A stretch of DNA of 64,000 bases, taken from positions 806,001 to 870,000 of the forward strand of contig NC_035791.1 in the NCBI RefSeq assembly GCF_001653235.2. The letters are read 5' to 3'. Within the stretch, counting starts at the first letter, position 1. Each line of letters starts with the position of its first letter. This stretch comes from Pochonia chlamydosporia 170 (taxonomy: Eukaryota; Ascomycota; Sordariomycetes; Hypocreales; Clavicipitaceae). Shown piece by piece: positions 6,264 to 61,639 of the stretch. The notes beneath the pieces are model-generated. The model made no database searches. It saw only the letters and a list, made by a program, of their open reading frames with translations, and was not told where the DNA came from. Position numbers and translations under genes: made by a program.

Positions 6264-9200
6264 ATCGCATCAAAGTTCGCAAGGGTCTTTTCTCTTAGGT
6301 CAACAAAGGGTATCCTCCAAGTGCCAAGGGGCGGGACGTTCGCTGTCTTTCATATCCAATATCAGAGCGGGCCGGATCTCATAGCAAACGCGTGGCAAAC
6401 GAGTAAGGGTAAAGTGAAACCTAAACAGGCGAGAGACGGCTGTTTGGGGTCAAGGAAGAAAGGGGTCTCAGTGTAACTCTCCTGTTCAGTCGGGTCGAGA
6501 ATTCTGCGGAAGGGCGATTTCTTCTCACCGTCCTCCTGGTATGACGCACATATCGTGGCTCTGCCCCTCCGATTGTGTTGTTTGGCGAAGGATCAAAAGG
6601 GGACCCTGACAAACTCAGACAGGTCCAGACCTCGAAATGACAAACGGGGTATGGAGTAGAGTGAACTTATTGAACGAAAGCTGCCGTACTCTCTTTACTG
6701 GGCCCTCCTCCATACTGGAGTTGCTCTGCTGAGACTTTGTTCCAGCAATCCAACGAAGGCTAATTGTCAGTGTCCTACTCCGTAGTTGTTCATTCAATCT
6801 GCCCCACTCAATCTGGTGCAATGTGCCATCCCCTTTTGTTGCAGTCTATCGCATCTCCGGCGGTACGTACGAAGTACTCCGGACGTACTGTGGCAGGAGA
6901 TTGGAGGATGGAATCCCCTGGGCTAGTTTGACTCACAAGGCAGTGAATGGAATATCTTCGAGAACCTTGGGCAAACTGATGTCCTGGAAAAGGATCTCGA
7001 GGGCAGGCCACCCACAGGCTGTGGTACCTGGAGCAGTGGAGATGGTGATACAGTAGTGGAGTCAGTCAAACGAGATTTGTTCAAGACAACTGCACGGAGT
7101 GTGCGGACGAGTCATCTGCGCTTTGTCGTGGGCTCCTGGAAAGAAACCTTTGTGCTCCTTTTTCCAATGGTCAGAGTATTATTGCACCATTGCAGAAGAG
7201 TTATACTCCGTATGGTTCTCTGCAATCTCGATACCGTATTCCGTGGCGTGGGTGTCTGATGCAAAACTAGCAGCAGGAGACGCAAAATACTGAAGAAATG
7301 ACCTGGAAGCAGGAGGTATTGGCGTGGCACGGATCTGCCAACTGATGAATCCAGGGGATTGATATTGAAACCTTCGGATCGTCCGGTACCAGCGACGACA
7401 GTTTAATTGTAGGGAGCAACAGAATATGGAAACTGGAAACAGTGACAGGATCGGCATACAGAGTGAACTTGGGGGTTTGAAAATGTGAATGTGTTGAACA
7501 GGGGCTTGTATCAATTGGTGAAGGCCAATTATGCTTGAACAGTTGCGAGGAAGGAGCGATGGAGGGGGCCACTCATTTTGTCAACCCCACCACAAGTGTC
7601 TGGTATGTTTTGTATAAAAGATTCATGGTCAGTGGCATGTGGTGATTGTACGTCTCTACAGAGGACCAGGAGTGCATACGTAGCAGCTGACTTTTCAAAT
7701 AGGCTCTGAGATTTCCAATCGAGAATGTGGCCGTTGCCGTTGTTGGGAAGGTTTCCGCAATCTAGCGTGCCGCTGTTGTCGCCTTCAATGCCAGCATAAG
7801 TTTGGAAACACTCAATGCAATGCAGTACCTAGGTAGGTATGTAGGCAGTCAAGACTGGCTCAAAACATGAGACGCCATGCCAAAGCCACTGGATGGAACT
7901 GGATATTACTGCATCGACGCAAGGTCACACCACTTGCGCCTCATCTCCGTATTCTTACCAGTCAGTTCTTTTTGGATCGATGTCCGGGGTTACAGTAGCA
8001 ACAAGGAGGCGAGAAGCCAGGCTGATTGCTGTCCCATCGAAGACGACCACTTGGTGTGGCTTGCGTAGCAATACTTGGCTTTTTGGTGGCCATGGTGTCG
8101 GGTCGGAAGCAGCCAAACAGAGCTTGAACCTGGCATCTATCGGGGGCTCAAAGAGAGCAGATGACAGCCATATCCGTCTGGTGAACACGCGCTTGGGCCA
8201 ATTCGATACTAGTCTCCAGCTTGGATTGTGCGTCCGGTCCTTGTGCCCGGGAGGAGCCTCTTGGTGATCGCGGCTAGCACTGACAATGATTAGTGCTTCC
8301 AGACATTCTTTGGACAGCGGCAGAGCCCGTCCTCGTCGTTTGTCGTCTCCAGTCCAGTCCTGACACGGTGACCCGCGCGGTGGTTGATCACTCCATGGCT
8401 GGTGATGGTGATGCATGCATGCATGCGAGATGTTCGCAGGTTCAGTGACGCACTCCCACATGCCTCGGCCAAACGACATGAACCGTGTAGGCAAGGTTTG
8501 GTGTCACGGACCTCAAATTGCATTTGAGTCGGAAATCTTGTTGATGTTTGGTCCATAGCGATGAGTAGGGGGCAGAGACGGAGACTGATGAAGTCATTTT
8601 ATCTGCCTTCTGTGCCTTTGCGGAACGAGCACAGTCTGGTTCATAAAGCCAACTGGTCCATTAGCACTGGAGTCAGTTCAGTCTAGCCATTACTTAAATT
8701 ATGATTGTGGCCTGGCCCGGCAATCCAAGTACAGTATGGTTCAAACGGTTAGTGAATAATCGCACTGTAATTTCAACCTTTGTTCGCCCCCTGTCAAGGC
8801 CCTGGACCAGCTGGCCAGAGCCACTATGAACACCTGAGCCATACAGTCAGGTATTGACTGGACCAGAGCCCCCGAATGGCCCCGCCGTCCAGTCAGTGCA
8901 CCACCGTCTGGTTCCATTGAAGCCGGGAAGATCCCATTTGTCAACACTTGAGGTCATCTGCATGTACCCGCTTGCTAAAAATTGGGTGGCAAGGTACCTA
9001 CAAGGGCTTATTGGCTCCGAGTTGGAGGGCCTGATAGAAGGACCGGCCTGGCCCGCAAGTCTAGGGCTCAGGTCAGCTTCCTAGGTACGCACTGTGTGTT
9101 GACATCGAATGGACGGATTCTAAGTTGTGAAGGGCATAAAACTGCACTGCGAGGTTGTGCAGATGATGGCGTTGGAAGTTTGATGCATGGGCATCACAAG

Positions 9201-43448: not shown

Positions 43449-45207
43449 GGAGGGAGGACAAAGTCTCTGTGTATGTGTCGATGTGCTAGGAAATATTGGG
43501 TCGCTTGTTTGGAGACCGAATGGCTGATTGAGTTAGGACCAGAAAAGGATAGTGATACCGTCAATATGGTTGCGGTTTGTCGGCCAAACGGAGTCAACAA
43601 GTCAGTGGAATTCAACGTTTGAGGGGAAGATCCGAAGTCATGAGGCGAGTGGAGATCAGATGAAGAGCATCCAAATTAGGCATAGACTATGTGCGTTTGG
43701 CCAATCAAAGAGACTTTGAGCTTGTCAAACTCTGCTCTCTTTTAAAGGATGCTGTCACCATAGCAGGTACATATGACCATAGCCGCATGAAAAATCTGGA
43801 TCCCGTCTGATCTCCGAGCGATAACCATGCGAGCGCCGGATTAGTAGTTGGGTCGGTGACGACCAGCGAATACCTGGTGTTATATGTAATTCACTTTTTG
43901 TCTTTTTGCCATTTACACTAGCTGAAAGCTAATTTGTCCCTTGATACCAAGTAAGTCGTGGCCAAGAAGAGTACTGTCGACATTGCTTGTCAAAACACAC
44001 CGTGGTGGACACTGTTTCCTTCGATGTAGTCCCTGTTTGTACTCATTTTTTGTTTAGTGGGCTCACCCGCCTGTCCATAATCCTTGGTTTAATTCTCTGT
44101 TCAACGTCCTCTACGTCTCGTTCACGGCCCTTCCTGTCACCAATGAGGAACGACAGTGACGGTGTGTCCAATATGAAGACTCACACCAAGTGCCTCCTCC
44201 TAATCCGCTGTTGGGTCCAAGAGAGGCAAATTTGTTGGCTATTCTCTCGTTCCAAAATTAACCGCAATTCTCCCTGTGGTGGATGAGTGAGGATATAAAC
44301 TGGGATGGCTTCTGAGACGTTGCGTCAACCCGAGATAAATCGCAACAAAGCTCGCGCACTACTCACGAGACGTTGATTTCCCGTCTCCCTCAGTCCAACC
44401 GGTCTGTGTTGCTTGTTCTCAAATGTCAGATCTCGACGTGGCAATTAGAGGTATGTGCACCTACTGGGACACTAGTGAAACATGGCCGTGAGCATTTGCA
44501 TCTCCTGTATGTTTTTACTGATAGCAGAATCTATTAGACCTTTAGTTTCCACCTTTCGGGCGATTCATCGCCACAGTCCGTCGATATCCGTCGATCCAAA
44601 TCCGGTCACTCCCGGTAGTTTGTTGGTACACCACACAAAAAGGCTCACCATACATCTCCGTCCGGTGAAACTCGACCATCCTTGTCATCACATTGTTCCT
44701 TACATCCTAGAACTTGGCGTGGCCGATCAAGCTCTTGGCGACCTTCTCTGTGCTGTGGTATTCCTGCTATTCCTTTCAGAGTGTTTCTGGTGCACCGACA
44801 AGGACTTGCTGGCCACCAAACCGATCTTCTACCCCTGTCTCATCGAGAAACACCTTGGAAACATTGTATTTTCTTTAATTAACACGATTATCAGAAATTT
44901 TTGCCGGACTGGCTCTGGCTCTTTGTTCTCCTCTTGGCTGGCCTCGAAATTGCGTAATCCTCTGGTCGTACTTGACCTTTGTTAGCTGATACTGTACGAC
45001 AGCATCAGTCCAGTAATGTTTCTCTTCGCAAATATGTGTGTGATAAGACTTTGTTGGCTCAAACGAATCTGTCGCTACCTGCCTCAGGAAGCCTAACCAG
45101 CATGACCTAGTTTTGAGCATTTAAACAAGATGTAAAGCTCATTACGACCACACTTTTCTTCACATTTGTTGGTCAGCATTGGTGATCCCGAGAAGCCGTT
45201 GAGTACA
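43449..45207. other. 1.8 kb without a supported gene; possible gene relic on minus strand
   Basis: Plus-strand frames at 43987-44286 and 44482-44985 have no domain. On the minus strand between about 44990 and 44540 one frame reads like decayed protein with several in-frame stops (see findings). The last 30 bases before the NACHT ATG contain a possible splice acceptor at 45176, so an extra 5' exon of that gene may lie here. Confidence 0.4.
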
Positions 45208-48200
45208 ATGGACGATTCCCTCATGCAATGGCACCTGGCTCAGGCGTGGGACCAGATCCTAGAATCTCAGCAGCAGATCCAAGAGCGGTGGCACAGGCGG
45301 GTGATGCTTGAGGAGGGCAATGAGAGGACACGCCAGTTAGCATTGGCAGCTTCGAAGTTACAGGAATCAAAGGAGCGGGAGGATTCAGTGACCAAGCTAC
45401 CACTGGACCAGCTTTTGGATGATTTCAATGCGATCAACTCCCACGACATTCTACTTGATTCTACCACGCTCGGAGACGAAACGTCAGAACTTCTCTACGA
45501 ATGGTTCCGTTCCAATCAGCAATACCAAGACTTCATCAGGGGCGATTCCCGAGTGCTGTGTGTCAGCGGGAGCCCAGGGAGTGGGAAGAGGACACTCCTG
45601 CTGTCAGTTGCTCGAGGACTTTCCGCAAGGCCAGTCAATTATCTGTTAGACTCGGTCTGTGCCAGTGGAAACCATATGCCCCAGGGCGCAACTTCAGTGC
45701 TCAAGAGCCTAATCTTTCGTCTCCTGGTTACTCAGCCTCATTTGCGCAAACACCTCACCGAAAAACGCATCTCCACGAATAGGAAGCAGTTTTCGGATCC
45801 TAATGACTTTTACGGGCTGTCCCTTCTCCTCTACGATATGATACGAGACGAGTCGCTCCGACGGACTACGTTTATCGTCAACGGAATCGACGAATGTGGC
45901 GACGACGGGTTAGACAAGTTCGCAACATTGATTTCGACGACCTTAAAATTATCGTCAGATGTCAGGTGGCTGGTATCAGCTACTTCCAATGAGTCTGCTA
46001 TCAAACCAGCGTTGGAGTATGCGTCGCAGTTCAATCTTGATGCAGAAGACAACCACGCAGCGCTACGCAAGATTTTTGACGAGGCCTATATTCCGTGGAA
46101 AGTGAGCCAACTTACAGGCATCAAACGCTACAAACAGAGTTTCAAGGATGATCTTATTCGGGGGCTTCGGGAACGATGCCCGACGAATTTCCTGTGGGCC
46201 GACATCGCATGCGAAGCCATCCGGCGAGGCCACCTTTCTCATGGTCAAGAAACCATTAACGCACTACCACAATATGAACTCTTCAACATTGAGCCAATGT
46301 ACACTCATATAATTAATCAGCTGGAAAAGCTAAAGCCATCACAACAGGAACACGACCTTCGAGTACTCCCAGCGTTGGCTGTCGTGTACGAACCACAGCA
46401 TGCGGAGGACTTGGAGCAGATCGTAGACCCCTCACCAAACTTTGACATTGCCGGGTTCGTAAAGGAAAGGTGGTTTGCCTTTCTGGAGCTGTGCGACAAG
46501 ACAATATACTTTAGGCATGCTTCAGCCAGAGAGTACATACGACGGGTGATGGCGAGTGAACTACATGGTGCTCACGCCAGGATCGTCGAGAACTGCCTCA
46601 AGCTCCTCTCGAAGGTACTGGAGGCCAGTGCTTCCGGAAGTGACCTGCCCCAAAAAGTCCTAGGCTTCGCAGATTACGCTGCTGTCTACTGGATTCGGCA
46701 CTTCAGCGACATGAACGATTTTGGGATGGTGGAGGATATCGTGACCGAGTTCCTTGGCAGTTCCGTCATGCTCAAATGGGTAGATCTCTTGTCTTCGAGG
46801 GGCAAACTCCCTCAAGCATGGGGTTTAATGAAGGACCTTAGGATGAAAGTATGTTGTCACGGAGATACGAGTTGCGAAAGGTCCCATTCCAAGTTCAATA
46901 TGGCTAATGTCATGCACAGATTTTTAATAACCAGACGGGCCATGGCAAAAGCCTTCTGCCACTGATCTACGACATAGAGCGGTTTCTTCAGTTTCATCGC
47001 TTCCTAATCAGCGAGGAGACCGATCGGGCCAGCAAATCACTGCTTTTCTCGCCCATTCAGAGTGAGGCGGGGAGAAAACTAATCTCTGACGAGTTTCCTC
47101 AACTGGCTGTCTTTCCAGGAACGAGCTGGAAAAGTCCTGTTGTCCTCGTCCTGCAAGGACATGCCAGGGCCGTTGGCGGCTGTGCGTACTCTCATGATGG
47201 CAAACTCTTGGTCTCGGCATCTTTCGACGGCTCGGTTCGCATCTGGGACATGGTAACGGGGAGGGTGCAGCACTCGTTTCGAGGTTTCAAAGGGGCGGTG
47301 AGGCACGTTGACCTTTCTGCCAGTGGTTTGCTTGCGGCCTCAGATGGATACGGGATCAAAGTTTGGGATCTAGCCAACGGCACGCCGCACCAGCCCCCGA
47401 GTGATGGAAGTTTGTTCAATGACGACGGGCTTATTCATAGTCTCGCTTTATCGAACGACGGAACTTTACTTGCTGCGACGATGGGGAGTTTCATCAATGT
47501 CTGGAAGCTTCCTTGTTATACACTGATCGCTCGACAAGTTTCTTGTGACAAGGGGTGTTATGCTGACCCGCCTGACACTTGTGATGGGAGCATTCTTCCA
47601 CACTCACCAGTGAGAGATATGAAGTTCTCTAGTGATGGAAAGTGGCTTGGGACGGTGTCTAGGATTGGACTCACTGTCTGGGAACTAGTCAACGAAGGAC
47701 AAAGGAGGACCATGGCAGCCATGGACCCAAGCACACAAGTTACGCAGTCAGAAGGTCATGTACACGAGCAGGAGACTACTGAGACGACGGCCGCAGCTAC
47801 AGGCGATGTAGAACATGGTGCTGAACATGTATCAGCAAGCGAAGCAGAACTGGAGACAACAATCGAAGCAGACCTAGAGACAACCAAAAGCACCCACACT
47901 TTACAACAATTGTACTGCTTCGACATGGATCCCGACGATGATGGTTGGACTAATGTGCTTGCCTTTTCTCCTGACTCGAGATATGTGGCTCTGGGGATGG
48001 ACGGGAAAAAACCCACAGTACGAATATGGGACCTAACGTCAAGCGCGGAAACTCTGCGCATGCCAGCCATCCTGATGGGGCATAGGGGCCCTGTTGATGC
48101 CATCTGCTTTTCTGCTGACGGCTCCCGTCTCGCGTCAGGGTCAAAAGACGGGGCGGCCATGATCTGGAAGGCGCCCTGGAATCGTGATTCCAAAGAGCCC

Positions 48201-49631
48201 GAAATGGTATTACAAGCCCACGGCCGGAACATAAAAGGGTTGTCATTTCGGCCGGACCAAAAACACCTCGCTGTCTGCCTGGATGACGGCACTATTCGTA
48301 TCTGGGACCACGGCTCTCAATTTGCCCAAACGTTGTCTGAACTTGAGACCACCAATGAAGCGGACAACCGGTTAGAGCAGGGAATCTCGCCGCACACGTC
48401 TGCCGTCATCTTCGTAACATCTTCGAAAGATGGACAATATGTCGCATCTGCATCCCTGGACGGCTCGATCTGCCTCTGGGAAGCGAAGTCGGGTACTCTC
48501 CTGCGTACCCTCCCAGGACACGACGAGCCCGTCACATCGCTTGTGTTCTCTCATGATGCTGAACAGCTCATTTCGGCATCAAAAGACAAGACAGCTCGCA
48601 TTTGGGAAATATCTGGGACTAGTGAGCCTCGCACACTCTATGGGCATGACAAGGGGGTTCGTTCCATTGCCATCTCGGATGACGGAAAATTGATTGCGTC
48701 GGGGTCTGACGACGAAACAGTACGGGTTTGGGACATCTCCCGGCCAGAATTGGAAGTCGACCAAGGGGCCTCTGATAACACTGATCCCGCAAATAACGGT
48801 AATAATCACAAAAATGCATTAGCAGACGTGGATGGTGTAAGAGTGCTGCGGGGTTCCCATCACTCCATTGCTTGTGTTGCATTTTCTCGGGATGCAAAAC
48901 TTGTTGCAGCCGGTAGTGATCTTGGTAAAGTCCTACTCTGGGAACTTTCAATGGATGAACCGAGCGCTTCGCACACACACAGGGAGATGTTCACCGGCCC
49001 TGGACATGGCGCCATCACAGCAGTGTCGTTTGGTCCCGGTCTCAACAGCCTGATAGCATGCTCTGATGAGGAGATGTGGGAATGGGACCCAAATCATGTC
49101 CACGGGAAGGGTGAACCTTGTGAACGCCTTGAAAAATTGGACACCGGCTATAATGATGAGGATGATCTCTGTGGGTACTCGAAACACGCGGCCACGAGTG
49201 CGCCATTCCGTACTCTACAAGTCAGCGATACGCAACCCGACTACGTAATGACGGCCTTGGGACCAGTTCGTCTGTCGAAGCTGGATTCTTGTTCTGCAGG
49301 GCCCGAATCCACGAGCTGGTGTCCATATAGCGCTACTCTTGTCTCCTCTGAGGACGGGCCAAAAGAATGCTGGATTACTCGGAAAGAGGAGAGCCTGATC
49401 TGCTTACCAGGGCCGTATAGACCCAGTAACGAAGGTGAACATCTTACTAAGAACATGATCTCGCGTCTACTTCGCCATAGCAGCCCAGTACTGGTCCTCG
49501 GGCACACAGTAGTAATTGGGTGTGGTACGGGTGATGTTTTGTTTTTCAGGTTCAAGGAGGACTACCAATCTGCGACTAAGTGGCCGATGAAGTGGGCGAA
49601 GAGTCTAGGACACTTATTCGCAGATTGGTAG
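45208..49631 (+). CDS. NACHT-WD40 (fungal NLR / STAND) protein
   Basis: Two exons, 45208-46848 and 46920-49631, joined over a 71-bp intron; 1450 residues. The N-terminal ~90 residues form a charged coiled-coil-like segment. The NTPase follows: P-loop 'VSGSPGSGKRTLLLS' (119-133) and Walker B region 'TTFIVNGIDECGDDG' (220-234), typical of fungal NACHT proteins except that the Ser/Thr after the P-loop Lys is Arg128. Helical domains follow to the end of exon 1. Exon 2 encodes about 12 WD40 repeats (for example 'GHARAVGGCAYSHDGKLLVSASFDGSVRIWD' and 'GHDKGVRSIAISDDGKLIASGSDDETVRVWD'), enough for two propellers, with an acidic Glu/Thr-rich insert at about 47750-47900. Fungal NLRs of this layout include heterokaryon-incompatibility proteins such as HET-E. 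A role in non-self recognition is inferred. A further 5' exon is possible. Confidence 0.9.
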
Positions 49632-54543: not shown

Positions 54544-54807
54544 CTAGCACAAATTGCACGTGCATTTGCGGCCGTTACAAGAGCCCGGGGAACAATGAGC
54601 TTCGTGGTCGCACGGCGTGCGCCTTGTTATGCCGTCAAATACAAAGCCGGCCGCCCGTGCCGCCTCCATCTGATCTGCTCGTACGAGGACCACCCCGCCG
54701 TAGGGGACCGTCATTTCGTTGGTCAAAAAGGGAGTATCGAGGTCTGCAATGGGCTTAGCCACGACTAGAAGAGCCTGGAAGGCAATGGTAAGAATGGCGG
54801 AGCGCAT
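54544..54807 (-). CDS. small secreted precursor with dibasic site and six-Cys C-terminal peptide
   Basis: Intact single-exon frame of 87 residues. Residues 1-18 form a signal peptide ('MRSAILTIAFQALLVVAKP'). Residues 19-61 are a Cys-free acidic pro-region. Arg62-Arg63 is a Kex2-type dibasic site, followed by a 24-residue tail with six Cys at 66, 72, 77, 82, 84 and 87 (C-x5-C-x4-C-x4-C-x-C-x2-C) and no other Cys in the tail. This architecture is that of a processed disulfide-rich mini-protein with three likely disulfides, as in effector, antimicrobial or signalling peptides. The Cys spacing is not the CS-alpha-beta defensin pattern (no CxxxC). The target and activity are unknown. The ATG at 54807 was chosen because the signal peptide starts there; the frame is open further upstream without extra support. 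Confidence 0.72.
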   Translation of the reverse strand: MRSAILTIAFQALLVVAKPIADLDTPFLTNEMTVPYGGVVLVRADQMEAARAAGFVFDGITRRTPCDHEAHCSPGSCNGRKCTCNLC

Positions 54808-56942
54808 GGTGAAGATTTTGGTCAGCCGAATTGCCTTGATATGGAGTGGTCCGTGTGCTTTTGGGGCGACTTGGTTTGCAAAAATGAAAGAAACTCGAAG
54901 AAGAATGTAAATATCTGATTTTTGCAAGGTGAAAGTGTGATGGGATGTTGCCACGCAGGTGATTGCTTCTGAAAAAGACGAGGGTGTAAGTGCCATATTT
55001 ATACTTGAGAAAGCCCATGCAAAGCTCACCGATATACTCGTTTAGCCGTGCCATTCAAGTCTATGTGTGTCGAAGCAGGCCGTGGTGTAGAAGCCTCAGC
55101 TCGTCCCGATATGGGGACTCATAGCATGCGCCAAGGCCCTGGAGGCTAAAAGGAAGGCGCCCCGAGCGTCGTCTTTAAGGCCCTTGAAGGTCATCGATGC
55201 CAGAATAGCAAGCCCGCTTTCTGATTTCAGGCAAGCTGCTTTTACGCGGGGCGTAGACAGATGACCTGATTGGAACTCCGGAGTCCTCGCAGGAACAGAG
55301 GGTGGATGAAAAAGGGCAGTCTGTGGCTTGAACAAAGCCCATACTAAGCACTAATGCACCTTTATCTTAATTCTTAATACTGAGGAGCATGGCCGCAAAC
55401 TGGAGAAGCCAGCCGGACAGGCATTTTACTGGCTAGGAGGTTTCCCTGCGCGATTTGCGTGCAGGGTTGGCCGGCTTTAGAGCCTGATCAAACTCAGCCT
55501 TCGCTTTTCCTTGGCTCACCTGAAAGATCATAGTGGGCTTGAAAGAGACTTTGCCGACCAAATGAATCGCAGGAACTTTTGCAACTCCAGACCGAGCAAG
55601 TTGCTGACCCCCAAGCTCCCCTTGTGCCGGTGTCGTAGGTAAACCCTATAGGCTTAACAGTATCTAAAGACCTCCTCGGCATTTGCTGTAACGGGCTATA
55701 CCCGAGAGTGGCTTGGAGCTCATCGCCCTTCGCCCCGGCCTGTCGGGCTGGGAACCACCGCAAGCGAGTTCGCTTCGTTTCTTTGTTTGGTTGGCTGGCT
55801 GGTGGGCAGATCAAGAGGTCATTCGGTCCATGGATGGATAAATAGTTTAACAAGGTTCAGCCCCCAACGCGTTTACTGCTTGACGATAGTCGTATATGGT
55901 CTGGGAAGATGCCTGGAATAATAGGAGCAAAGCTTGGCTATGGGGCTGAGCTCTGTCGTCGCACATACATACCGCTTTTACTTGTCTTGTGGACCAATTG
56001 TGGACGAGACGACAAGTGAAATTATTAGCAACGATTAACAGTTTACGACACTTAAACTAACATCATTTAGGTGTCTAGCAGAGAGGGTGTGTTTAAGCAA
56101 TATCGTTAGAGAGTATTCAGAGCATCAAGCCTTGCCATATACAAAGCTCGTACAATTACGTCTCTGGTTAGTCAAGGGTACGGGGAGTGCCTCAAACAAT
56201 ATATCGTATCTTGAGGTCCGCGCCAGCCATGTCCGCAACAGCGTAGACAAGTACGGAACAACGATCAGAACGACAAGCCAATTAACGTGGAGTTCACCTT
56301 AGGTATAAGAGAACTCCCAGGCCTGTGGTCAATCGGGTTCACAAGCGCAATATATAGGCACCTCGAACTTTCTCCTTTAATGATTATACTCCTTGGCTTG
56401 CAACCGACGCTTCATAGCACCATCCTAAGTTCACACTTTGAGTGGCCGCACTAATTCCTGGTTACGGCCTACGACTAACTACCAGAGTAACATTTAACCG
56501 CTGACATTGACTGCCCTAGTGTCTCTGCCAATATACACCCAGCCTGGTTCATCCCTAAGGAGCCCTAGTCATTACATGCCCAGCTAAGCAGTCGAGTTAC
56601 CCTACATCTAATTCAAGTCTAAATTTTCCTACAGAAGTTGCTAATTACCGTCACTACGAGGTGGAATAACCGAAGTCTTCGACCCTGTCGCGTAATATCG
56701 CACGGCTTGCTGAAGCAGGAGAGGTAAATCTACAAGTTCCTCAAGGTCCGCAAATAGTCGCGAATTGAGAACACTCAATAGAAAATAAATAGAGTTCCTG
56801 AAAATAAATAAACGAAAGGTAGTCTTTGTTCCGGACACAGTAAACCCATCTTCCAAACGAGATACCTCTCTCTCATAGCGTCAGAAATCTCATGATTTGC
56901 TTAAATTCCCCTCGCACGAGCAGTCATATAATTACTGCATCC
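54808..56942. other. 2.1 kb AT-leaning, gene-poor region
   Basis: No supported gene. Minus-strand frames at 55096-55335, 55494-55853 and 56641-56856 and a plus frame at 56087-56302 lack signal peptides, domains or splice logic. From about 55980 to 56940 stops are dense in all frames, compatible with decayed or mutated repeat DNA, but no element was identified. Confidence 0.45.
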
Positions 56943-57256
56943 TTAGTTATATGATGAGTCATTGTGATCATCAGAAATTTGCAGCAAGGGGTCCGATTCG
57001 AAGACGCTGCGTTCATATGAGCTAACGGTCGGATCTGCCGAGATGTCAAGCAGAGGATCTGAGATAAAGTTGCCTCGCTTTTGAGCATCACCGGGGCCGT
57101 TCTTGGCAATTTCAAGCCCACTAGTTCCCGAACGCGCTACTGAAACCGCGTATGTTAGTCATTAATCATTCCAGAATTGTCTCAGAAGAATATACCAGCT
57201 GGAGCAGCTACCACTACCGTGGCAAGCAAAGAAAATGTGAGGCAAACAAGACGCAT
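56943..57256 (-). CDS. putative RiPP precursor peptide (dikaritin/ustiloxin type)
   Basis: Two exons on the minus strand, 57256-57196 and 57139-56943, with a 56-bp GT-AG intron (branch 'gactaac'), 85 residues. Residues 1-18 or so are a signal peptide ('MRLVCLTFSLLATVVVAAPA'). A short leader ends in Lys41-Arg42, a Kex2 site. The rest consists of two similar units: one starting 'GNFISDPLLDIS' and one starting 'SVFESDPLLQIS', each matching F-x-S-D-P-L-L-x-I-S-x-D-x3-S-S-Y and each ending in Tyr (62 and 84), separated by Glu-Arg. Signal peptide, dibasic processing and repeated Tyr-containing cores are the marks of fungal UstYa-linked RiPP precursors such as UstA. It lies 649 bp from and divergent to a UstYa gene. 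No database check was possible; a short two-repeat precursor is smaller than UstA. Confidence 0.72.
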
Positions 57257-57905
57257 GGCTATTAAACTTGATAGATTTCTGAAAAATTGACAATGGGGTT
57301 CGATGGCTGGACGCTGGCTATCAGGGGCGAACTCTGCTTACATATTTCTACCAGGGAACCATTTCGTGAAGAATCAGCCTTGCTGACTACAACGCACAGG
57401 TAGGGATCGGCATAATTGTCATCCATTCTTACAATGGCTGCCTGTGAAAACATAGGAGTTTGTGCGAGTTTCGCATCGGGAGGTTACTTTGCATGGCGGC
57501 TGTCATGCGAGGTCGTGTGATGGAGCAGAAGGGCTGGGAAGTGATAAGAGTGTCACAACGGGACATGTCAGACGTAGCAAACTTGTAGCTTGTACTTGTA
57601 AGTTATGGTACCTACAGCCTCGGATAGACGTCATACCGTCTCACCACTCTCACATGTGTACAATAGTTCCTAATGAGTCTATTCTTGGATTGTTATTCTA
57701 ATTGCAATCGAAGTTTGTCATCTCAACACGTAGATGCTGTTCACAACAGTACTCTCATTCATCGAAAGCTTGTCTTCGACGCAGGGGTTTTCCAGGAACT
57801 ATCTCTGTTTGTGCTTCTCACGCTTCGTATGAGTACGAAGATCCCTGACAACAGCTTCAGTTGTCTGTGGTTCTGGCTATCACGACACAGACTTGCCTAC
57901 CAGTC
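57257..57905. promoter_or_regulatory. shared divergent upstream region of precursor and UstYa genes
   Basis: A 649-bp region between the starts of the RiPP precursor (minus) and the UstYa gene (plus). Its placement suggests co-regulation of the two genes. I could not pick out a convincing transcription-factor site or TATA box. Short frames inside it (57262-57453 minus, 57462-57701 plus) have no support. Confidence 0.45.
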
Positions 57906-58897
57906 ATGATGCCGCACCCTGTCGTTGCCTGGCGACAATACGTCATGGAAAGAAAGAGCAAAGAAGTCGGCGATGATAACGAAGCCAGTCATCATCTCCT
58001 CGACCCGGAATCGCGAGCAATTGTTCCTTCTTCGCAGTATAAGAGGTCCAAATCACTGTGGTTGTTGTTTCACGTGGCAATCGCTGGAATCTATCTTATT
58101 CTAATTCCATATGTTTTGTCCGCGTTATCAAAAAGTGGGCAGAACGGCTGCGTTGCAAAGTTCAATTACTACTGTAACACCTCCGGCCCTTAAATTCGTA
58201 TATCTATACCAGATAGACGAAGCTAACACGTAACTCACAGCTCCAATCAACGAAGCCATCAACGAAGAATATGTGGATGTCAGGTTCAACGGTTCCCTGT
58301 GGCACGACTCGCCATACAAAGGACCACCAACACCCGCGGTCGAACAAGCATGGCAAGATCTAATGGCATGTAAGATAATTCATTGCATTTCCAATCAATT
58401 TCAATATTTGACGACACAAAATTCTAACCCTTTGCATTCAAGACGGAACCATAAGCGTCACAGCCGAGGACATCATCCGCATTGGCCACAATCTCACGGC
58501 GGTGCAGTTTCCAGAGATCGCGGGGGGCGGCTATCTTGCAGTGGCAATGGGAACGCATCAGATCCATTGCTTGCACTATATCTGGCAAGACCACCATATG
58601 GACTCATTCCCAAAGACGAAGGCAAACAAAAAGGGGGCACCGGAAATGTACGAAAGGCATTACGAGCACTGTATTGATTACATTCGCCAGACACTCATGT
58701 GCAACTTTGATCCGGGGATCATTCCGTACTACTGGGTGAGGAAGCATAATCAGCCTACTCCAGATGGTAATACCCAACACAAGTGTGTTAACTGGGATGC
58801 TTTGCATGGCTGGTTGAAAGAACGAGCAGTGCACATGCCTGATGGATTCGAGTGGCATCAGCCTCCGGACGCTGTGTCTCTGCCAGACAATCCTTGA
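57906..58897 (+). CDS. UstYa-family (DUF3328) oxidase
   Basis: Three exons, 57906-58173, 58241-58369 and 58443-58897 (introns 67 and 73 bp, branch sites CTAAC), 283 residues. There is an N-terminal polar segment, one membrane helix ('LWLLFHVAIAGIYLILIPYVL'), then the family's lumenal domain: 'YSPINEAINEEYVDVRFNG', 'SPYKGPPTPAVEQAWQDLM', and two HxxHC motifs, 'HQIHC' (171-175) and 'HYEHC' (205-209), the second followed by 'IDYIRQTLMCNFD'. In ustiloxin, asperipin and cyclochlorotine pathways UstYa proteins carry out oxidative cyclisation or hydroxylation of peptides in the secretory route. A second in-frame ATG lies three bases on. Divergent from the precursor gene, so the pair probably makes a side-chain-cyclised peptide. 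No second UstYa, tyrosinase or methyltransferase gene is in the window. Confidence 0.94.
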
Positions 58898-59945: not shown

Positions 59946-61639
59946 TCAACATTCAAGAGACTCAACCAAGTTTACGTGACGATGCTCGTTCTCCATCTGA
60001 ACTAGTTTCTGGCAGAAAGGGCTGCGGGCTCTCAATAACGGCCCCCAGCGAATGAATGCAAATGAAATTAGGGTCAGAAGGAGGCACAAGCCGCCGAGTA
60101 ACGTGCAAGCCCATTTTGTCCCAAGATTCTCGTACAAGGGATACGTCGTCAAAGGAATGATGACCGCGGCAAGAACATTGCGCGTAAAGACACTTGATGC
60201 CAATGCCGACGCACTGTAAATGCCATAGATATCCGTGAGATAGTTGTTTAGCGCCATGAACGTCAAGTCAATACCTATCCCCAAAGGAATTCCCGACAGG
60301 CACAGCCTAATGGACATTCGGCAGAGCTGTCCACCCCAGCCAAAACTCAGACAGAGCAAAAAGCGGTCCGCCAATGCATGCGAGAGGGAGTCGTCTGTAC
60401 TCTTCTTGTAAGGCCCATTGCTTGCCAGCTTTGATACTGCGTTTGTGGAACCGATCCCAGGTGACAAAGATGACGATCGCGAGAACAGCCCCGATTCCAG
60501 TGGGAATGAACATTAAAGCGGACATACCATCAGACATGGAATACGCTCCCCGGGAAATGACTGGATATGCCCCAAAGTAGAGGAAGAAGATAACATATTG
60601 ATAGAGGATAAAAAGGTCGGTGAAGAACACAAGCAGCTCGGAGAGCAACCTAATCGGGCGAGCCAGTATTCTGGTATGTTTCCCAAAATTGAAGTATGCA
60701 CTGGCGACGACCGGAGCTTGTACTTCATGCATGGGGTAACTTGAGATGTTCTGGGTGCTACGAGCTTTGAGCACCGGGCCAAATGTCTCAGGCATGACCA
60801 GAAGCAAGGGCCAGCTAATACCAGCAAATATGAGGGCACACCAAAACTGCCACTGCCAGACCTTTGTAGAGGTGAATCCCGAGAGAATTGGTCCAACAAG
60901 AGGTCCCACATTGCTTGTCAGACCGAGGAATGTCATGGCCATTCCTCGCGGTCCGAGGTCTGGGTAGAGATCACAGAACAACCCGCCTGAGAATGTCTGG
61001 GGAGCTGCAGTGCCGCATCCCATCATGAATCTAAAGAAGAGAAATGTCGACCAGTTTGGAACAAGAGCGCACCCTAACGTGAATACAGTGTAGATGGAAA
61101 AAGGAATTAGAAAGGCCGGGCGACGGCCCCAGGACTCAGACATTGGAGCAAAGATGATGGGACCAAAAACTGCGTATGCTTTATGAGTAATTGAGTTTCA
61201 CGACACAGGATGTTAAGACAGTCTCCCATTGTGTGACACAGAAGGTTAGAACTCTTACATACTATAGCCAACGAGGAACACGGCAACAGGTAGCGGCTTT
61301 TGGAGTTCTGTGGTAATTCCAAAATGTGCATTTAAGGTGGATGCGGCACCGCTTGGAAGAGAAGAGCCCATGGCGACATTGAAGTTTAAAAAGATGACTG
61401 TTACAGAGATGAGAAGTTTTCGTGTCTGGAGTCCAAGTTGAATAAGACAAGCGCTCTTGAGCTAGCAGCGTAAAGTCACACTTGCCTTGGATAACTTGAT
61501 GCCCACTTGCGCAGGTGCTACCAGATTATGATCTACGAACTCAGCTAGAACGGCGGGTCATATGTTTATGTGATACAGGTGTGTACAAACCTTCCATATC
61601 TCGAGATACAGGATCGACCATTCTATGGAGGGGCGCCAT
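59946..61639 (-). pseudogene. MFS transporter, DHA1 (drug:H+ antiporter) type, disrupted
   Basis: Exons on the minus strand: 61639-61591, 61544-61486, 61425-61263 and 61178 onward, with a possible GC-AG second intron (GCAAGT donor at 61485). The start 'MAPLHRMVDPVSRDMEAEFV' precedes 'SKTRKLLISVTVIFLNF' (first helix), 'GYTYAVFGPIIFAPMSESWGRRP' (motif A), 'MGCGTAAPQTFSGG' and 'SNVGPLVGPILSGF' (motif C region), all typical DHA1. The reading reaches 'EFWLGWTALPNVH' and then hits TAG at 60309-60307, where a Trp is usual. The transporter continues in another frame from 60296 ('SGIPLGIGIDLTFMALNNYL') to a stop at 59946. Intact it would be about 500 residues; as read it ends at 380. An intron skipping the lesion (donor GTACAG near 60387) keeps frame but deletes a conserved helix. 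It probably once exported the locus product or another toxic compound. Confidence 0.7.

What the first reader, a model, noticed from the sequence alone, without database searches (positions are those of the whole stretch)
56943..58897. Minimal UstYa-type RiPP locus: precursor and oxidase in divergent pair
A secreted precursor with signal peptide, Lys-Arg site and two repeat units ending in Tyr lies head to head with an intact UstYa/DUF3328 gene (two HxxHC motifs). Seen directly: the open frames, splice sites, repeats and motifs. Established: UstYa proteins with such precursors make dikaritins (ustiloxin, phomopsin, asperipin). Inferred: the pair makes a new side-chain-cyclised peptide. The core sequence differs from the known dikaritin cores I can recall, and the precursor is very short.
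Basis: partly seen in the sequence, partly recalled or inferred. Interest (0 to 1): 0.92.

Follow-up and report, generated by a model that had tools for sequence, protein, structure and literature searches.

The report
Fungal peptide precursor with UstYa oxidase
Two neighbouring fungal genes, one for a short secreted repeat peptide and one for a UstYa-type oxidase, look like a small member of a known class of modified-peptide pathways, of which this genome holds several.

Summary
The minus strand carries an intact two-exon, 85-aa secreted precursor (57256-56943) with one Lys-Arg site and two imperfect 22-aa repeats. Divergent from it, 650 bp away, lies an intact three-exon UstYa protein (57906-58897; PF11807, 181.5 bits; both HxxHC motifs).

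The same genome gives the best test of the pairing. I saw repeat-precursor candidates beside UstYa genes at 8 of the 20 other UstYa places fetched, and 7 of the 8 are divergent like this one. My scan for secreted repeat genes found only this gene in about 96 kb of window and flanks.

The RiPP reading is therefore well supported, but the locus is one of several minimal pairs of a published class. It is not exceptionally short: two sibling models are shorter. It departs in having two repeats and no dibasic site between them, so it fails the published KEP criterion; 2 of 6 sibling models checked also lack dibasic sites.

Cyclisation, product, expression and conservation elsewhere are untested. 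Verdict: new member of a known kind, modest interest.

The parts
57196..57256 (-). precursor exon 1: start codon and signal peptide
   Evidence: hydropathy judgement only
57140..57195 (-). precursor intron, 56 nt, phase 1, CTAAC branch site, directly behind the signal peptide
56943..57139 (-). precursor exon 2: propeptide with one KR site and two imperfect 22-aa repeats, each ending Ser-Ser-Tyr; stop codon
57257..57905 (.). shared 5' region between the two divergent start codons
   Evidence: a shared promoter is inferred, not tested
57906..58173 (+). UstYa gene exon 1: N-terminal tail and transmembrane segment
   Evidence: the transmembrane segment is read from the sequence
58241..58369 (+). 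UstYa gene exon 2
58443..58897 (+). UstYa gene exon 3: both HxxHC motifs, stop codon
59946..61197 (-). neighbouring MFS transporter exons, convergent, about 1 kb beyond the UstYa stop; possible exporter, link unproven
   Evidence: PF07690 80.9 bits on 60307-61197; efflux-type NCBIfam matches all below cut-off

Best explanation
The locus is a small UstYa-type (dikaritin-like) RiPP pair. The precursor enters the secretory pathway by its signal peptide, is cut after Lys-Arg by a kexin, and its Tyr-containing repeats are oxidised, most likely cross-linked, by the membrane-anchored UstYa protein made from the divergent gene; peptidases then trim the product and it is exported. Shown here: both intact gene models, the repeat, the single KR site, the intact double HxxHC motif, and recurrence of the same arrangement in this genome. 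Inferred: splicing in vivo, substrate pairing, the oxidation chemistry, the final cuts and the export.
For: Intact spliced gene models at 56943-58897. PF11807 match at 181.5 bits. Across 9 UstYa exons of this genome the only invariant columns are the six residues of the two HxxHC motifs, and the window protein has all six. Repeat score not reached in 2000 shuffles. Scan for secreted repeat genes: the only hit in about 96 kb of window and flanks is this gene. Siblings: candidates at 8 of 20 other fetched UstYa places, divergent from at least one UstYa gene in 7 of 8 (positions), and a phase-1 intron directly behind the signal peptide, as in the window gene, in 4 of the 7 siblings modelled (L016, L021, L026, L034). 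Kexin-like genes (S8 plus P domain) at three places in the genome. Published background: 22% of 7878 KEPs lie near DUF3328 genes, most often at the next position (sections 7 and 13 of PMC7329392).
Against: Only two repeats and no dibasic site between them, so Kex2 alone would release one piece of 44 residues, not single cores. No tyrosinase and no S41 peptidase match on this contig. At 12 of the 20 other UstYa places fetched I accepted no precursor candidate, so UstYa genes here do not always have a visible one; six further places were not fetched. For the part after KR the repeat beats shuffles narrowly (50 against 48). No precursor paralogue in the genome and no relative could be searched. 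No transcript or metabolite data.
Confidence: 0.75

Rival explanations
1. The precursor is a secreted, unmodified (linear) peptide or small effector-like protein, and the UstYa gene beside it acts on something else.
For: The same review set says that most KEPs (78% of 7878) have no DUF3328 neighbour (PMC7329392 section 7). Another small secreted protein lies about 2 kb away at 54544-55041. Only one KR site.
Against: The scan found no other secreted repeat gene in about 96 kb around, so chance adjacency is unlikely. Divergent pairing recurs at 7 of 8 sibling candidates. Both repeat units keep Ser-Ser-Tyr.
Confidence: 0.13
2. The UstYa protein is a tailoring enzyme (hydroxylation, halogenation or other) for a non-RiPP pathway, and the precursor-like frame is incidental.
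For: UstYa-family proteins also act in the cyclochlorotine pathway, with hydroxylation, chlorination and transacylation (passage of PMC12048977).
Against: Among the right-hand flank frames that I submitted to Pfam (MFS, fungal rhodopsin-like, ThDP enzyme, M1 peptidase) none is a biosynthetic core enzyme; the flanks were not annotated in full. The precursor model has a consensus intron, signal peptide, KR site and a repeat beyond shuffles.
Confidence: 0.07
3. The precursor or the pair is a decayed, no longer functional locus: a former multi-repeat precursor worn down to two diverged units that lost the dibasic separator.
For: Repeats agree at only 12 positions and at 34 of 66 bases, while several siblings have near-identical repeats. 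The sibling candidate at L020 has a stop codon inside its second repeat.
Against: Both frames in the window are open with consensus splice sites, and all catalytic-motif residues are intact. L019 and L026 also lack dibasic separators yet keep several near-identical repeats.
Confidence: 0.05

Closest known systems
Asperipin-2a locus (one UstY homologue; four genes)
   Same: Small locus, a single UstYa-type protein, secreted repeat precursor, no tyrosinase named among its four genes (PMC6514808 passage).
   Different: That locus has a transporter and an isoflavone reductase; its precursor repeats are separated by Kex2 sites and carry a different core. Here only an MFS gene of unproven link lies near, and no dibasic site separates the repeats.
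Ustiloxin and phomopsin loci (dikaritins)
   Same: Signal peptide, repeats with Tyr, UstYa-type oxidase.
   Different: Those have Tyr-x-Ile-x cores, two or five DUF3328 genes and a tyrosinase (PMC7329392 sections 3, 7, 9). Here one UstYa gene, no Tyr-x-Ile-x, no tyrosinase on the contig.
Epichloecyclin precursor GigA
   Same: Secreted precursor with few imperfect repeats containing Tyr.
   Different: Four repeats with KR sites (PMC6514808 passage); here two, with no KR between them.
Other repeat precursors beside UstYa genes in the same genome (L016, L017, L019, L020, L021, L023, L026, L034)
   Same: Divergent from a UstYa gene in 7 of 8; phase-1 intron behind the signal peptide in 4 of 7 modelled; L016 and L021 also have two repeats; L019 and L026 also lack dibasic separators.
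   Different: No detectable sequence similarity of the precursor; UstYa at most about 31% identical over the C-terminal exon.

Membership tests
UstYa / DUF3328 protein (PF11807) | match above the curated Pfam cut-off | tested here: met
   181.5 bits against a cut-off of 25, residues 43-260
UstYa / DUF3328 protein (PF11807) | two HxxHC motifs | tested here: met
   HQIHC and HYEHC, invariant across 9 aligned exons of this genome
Dikaritin (UstYa protein as class-defining enzyme, repeat precursor) | DUF3328 gene beside a precursor with signal peptide and repeated units | tested here: met
   signal peptide by heuristic only
Dikaritin (UstYa protein as class-defining enzyme, repeat precursor) | oxidative cyclisation or other modification of the core by the UstYa protein | not testable with these tools
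   needs a metabolite
Dikaritin in the older five-gene sense (as told in PMC12048977 passage) | tyrosinase in the cluster | tested here: not met
   5 PF00264 matches in the genome, none on contig C2
Dikaritin in the older five-gene sense (as told in PMC12048977 passage) | several DUF3328 genes in the cluster | tested here: not met
   next PF11807 match on the contig about 70 kb away
Dikaritin in the older five-gene sense (as told in PMC12048977 passage) | methyltransferase in the cluster | not tested
   no family search made
Dikaritin in the older five-gene sense (as told in PMC12048977 passage) | transporter or peptidase in the cluster | tested here: inconclusive
   MFS genes 1 kb and 3 kb away, link unproven; no S41 peptidase on the contig
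KEP (Kex2-processed repeat protein, criterion of PMC7329392 section 13) | at least 3 tandem repeats of at least 8 aa between KR, KK, RK or RR sites | tested here: not met
   two repeats, one dibasic site, none between the repeats
KEP (Kex2-processed repeat protein, criterion of PMC7329392 section 13) | signal peptide by SignalP | tested here: inconclusive
   hydropathy heuristic passed; SignalP not available

The most novel reading that the evidence does not exclude
This genome carries a subclass of UstYa-linked repeat precursors whose repeats are not separated by dibasic sites (the window gene, L019 and L026). Their cores would be released by something other than the usual Kex2 cuts at every repeat, or be used as one long multiply cross-linked peptide, and mining that requires dibasic separators and three repeats misses them.
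Probability: 0.25. Interest if true: 0.55.

Novelty: new member of a known kind. Interest (0 to 1): 0.36.

Why it matters
If right, it adds a precursor with an unreported-here core type to a peptide class with very few characterised products (five named in the passage of PMC10512285). The within-genome comparison suggests that short, two-repeat or dibasic-free precursors beside UstYa genes are common in this fungus, and that published criteria (three or more repeats between dibasic sites) pass over them. That bears on how many such pathways genome mining undercounts.

Tried and rejected

Solved structures: no useful relative of the UstYa protein (one chain, E 1.2). Structure prediction of UstYa exon 3 from the single sequence was worthless (mean pLDDT 40.9), so no fold search was made.

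Precursor families: no Pfam match at E 0.01 or below and no NCBIfam match at E 0.1 or below; no paralogue in the genome at E 10 or below; weak tblastn matches in L017, L028 and elsewhere (E 1.3 or worse) are chance.

The scan is mine, with filters written after I had seen candidates. It recovered 4 of the 8 candidates that I accept by eye (L017, L019, L023, L034), missed 4 (L016, L020, L021, L026), and gave 3 hits that I judge spurious or doubtful (two in L018, one antisense in L023). A weak secreted candidate in L031 (9459-9749) was also not counted. The control part was about 96 kb (the script's printed 100000 counts all of L009, of which 5 kb was scanned) and gave one hit, the window gene.

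The 1e-4 binomial for 8 of 9 divergent pairs assumes one neighbour and odds of 1/4. Several loci have two or more UstYa genes, and intervening genes were not excluded, so treat it as rough. The splice models of siblings were picked by eye among 2 to 21 alternatives each.

Taxonomy: five alpha-pheromone-like repeats on contig C2 fit an ascomycete of the Sordariomycetes (recalled); a text search for three full decapeptides read from them and one shorter shared string found no paper. The species stays unknown. A text search for Kex2-independent or monobasic processing with UstYa precursors gave 7 papers, none seen to describe it (listing only).

Full report
The finding was checked from the raw sequence. 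On the minus strand, exon 1 (57256-57196) encodes a hydrophobic signal-like peptide ending Ala-Ala-Pro-Ala. A 56-nt intron with GT-AG ends and a CTAAC branch site follows at phase 1, and exon 2 (57139-56943) encodes the rest of an 85-residue protein. After the only dibasic site, KR at residue 41, come two 22-residue units that agree at 12 positions, keep SDPLL, IS and SSY, and end in Tyr followed by Glu-Arg or by Asn and the stop. On the plus strand a three-exon gene (57906-58897, 283 aa) encodes an N-terminal transmembrane segment and a full PF11807 domain at 181.5 bits with HQIHC and HYEHC. The start codons are 650 bp apart, head to head.

Is it more than chance? The self-repeat score of 58 was reached by 0 of 2000 shuffles of the whole protein (highest 36) and by 0 of 2000 without the signal peptide (highest 41). 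For the 43 residues after KR the margin is thin: 50 against a highest of 48 in 2000. I then scanned DNA for a signal-peptide start joined directly or through one consensus intron to a repeat-bearing frame. In about 96 kb, the window plus 32 kb of flanks, the only hit was this gene. In 200 kb around other UstYa genes there were 7 hits, of which I accept 4. The filters were written after candidates had been seen, so the scan shows rarity rather than an unbiased rate.

The strongest evidence is internal to the genome. PF11807 gives 48 exon-level matches in the 44.2-Mb assembly, which I group by eye into 27 places. At 8 of those 20 I see a secreted repeat-precursor candidate: L016, L017, L019, L020, L021, L023, L026 and L034. 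At the other 12 I accepted none; L018 and L031 hold doubtful ones. In 7 of the 8 the candidate is divergent from at least one UstYa gene, as in the window; L020 is in tandem (positions; rough binomial for 8 of 9). Of the 7 siblings modelled, 4 have a phase-1 intron directly behind the signal peptide like the window gene (L016, L021, L026, L034), L023 fits a phase-0 intron better, and L017 and L019 have no intron. So the window pair repeats an arrangement that this fungus uses many times.

The siblings also put the claims of shortness and novelty in proportion. The models at L021 (66 aa) and L016 (72 aa) are shorter, and both have two repeats. The sequences themselves are unrelated: the precursor has no other match in the genome at E 10 or below, and the closest UstYa relatives are about 30% identical. 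Across nine UstYa exons the only invariant columns are the six His and Cys residues of the two motifs, all present in the window protein.

Mechanism. The best-supported reading is a small dikaritin-like pathway: secretion, kexin cut after Lys-Arg, oxidation of the Tyr-containing units by the membrane-anchored UstYa protein, trimming and export. The genes are shown; the chemistry is inferred from ustiloxin, phomopsin and asperipin-2a, where UstYa-family proteins are needed for cyclisation (PMC7329392 sections 3 and 7; PMC6514808 passages). Kexin-like genes with S8 and P domains exist at three places. No tyrosinase and no S41 peptidase match lies on this contig; the asperipin-2a locus shows that a single UstY homologue without a tyrosinase among its four genes can suffice. 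An MFS gene 1 kb downstream could export the product, but it is convergent, and MFS genes are common near anything.

What does not fit. The repeats are not separated by a dibasic site, so Kex2 would release one piece of 44 residues. By the published KEP criterion, three or more repeats between KR, KK, RK or RR (PMC7329392 section 13), the gene is not a KEP. L019 (four 15-residue units) and L026 (four 20-residue units) have no dibasic site at all. By reading the translations, L016, L020 and L021 have two repeats each. So several of the nine candidates, the window gene included, would be passed over by such mining. Whether the dibasic-free ones form a real subclass with other processing is open; that is the boldest reading that the evidence leaves standing.

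Rivals. A linear secreted peptide beside an unrelated UstYa gene is possible, as most published KEPs have no DUF3328 neighbour, but recurrence of the divergent pair argues against it. A UstYa enzyme of a non-RiPP pathway is possible (passage of PMC12048977), but the right-hand flank frames that I submitted showed no core biosynthetic enzyme, although the flanks were not annotated in full. A decaying locus is possible because the repeats are diverged; both frames and all motif residues are nevertheless intact.

Papers. PMC7329392: abstract and sections 3, 7, 9, 13 and part 1 of 2 of section 6. PMC12048977, PMC6514808, PMC10512285: passages. PMC7099791: outline and abstract only. The rest: listings with the starts of abstracts.

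Limits. No protein database, no related genomes, no transcripts, no SignalP, and an unusable structure model (pLDDT 40.9). A new member of a known kind, with modest interest; the dibasic-free siblings are what I would follow up first.

Noticed in passing
window 54544-55041 (-): Small secreted protein whose C-terminal part, after an Arg-Arg site, is a short stretch with six Cys; no Pfam match. It lies about 2 kb from the precursor.
   Followed up: partly
window 45136-49631 (+): NACHT/NPHP3_N domain followed by a large WD40 propeller in an overlapping frame: an NLR-like gene.
   Followed up: no
L019 about 6509-6772 (+): 88-aa secreted precursor candidate with four 15-aa units and no dibasic site, divergent from a UstYa gene.
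   Followed up: partly
L026 6735-7101 (+): Secreted precursor candidate with four near-identical 20-aa units and no dibasic site in the 103-aa model, divergent from a UstYa gene.
   Followed up: partly
L017 4415-5008 (-): Precursor with six near-identical Tyr- and Trp-containing units between Lys-Arg sites, flanked by two UstYa genes.
   Followed up: partly
L017 7066-7788 (-); L033 5323-6123 (+): Proteins with two HxxHC motifs and a different surrounding sequence: one matches UstYa below the Pfam cut-off (16.7 against 25 bits), the other matches no Pfam family. Possibly a distant UstYa branch.
   Followed up: partly
L020 7294-7482 (+): Two-repeat precursor candidate beside UstYa with a stop codon inside the second repeat; described only.
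   Followed up: no
G000:C3:4553870-4567224: Several UstYa matches followed about 7 kb on by an S41 peptidase match: perhaps a larger dikaritin-type cluster.
   Followed up: no
G000:C6:2569639-2571019, C12:363188-364568, C15:14343-15723: Three kexin-like loci (S8 plus P domain); the C12 and C15 copies score alike and may be duplicates or alternative contigs.
   Followed up: no
G000:C2:5309868-5310350: Five alpha-pheromone-like repeats.
   Followed up: partly
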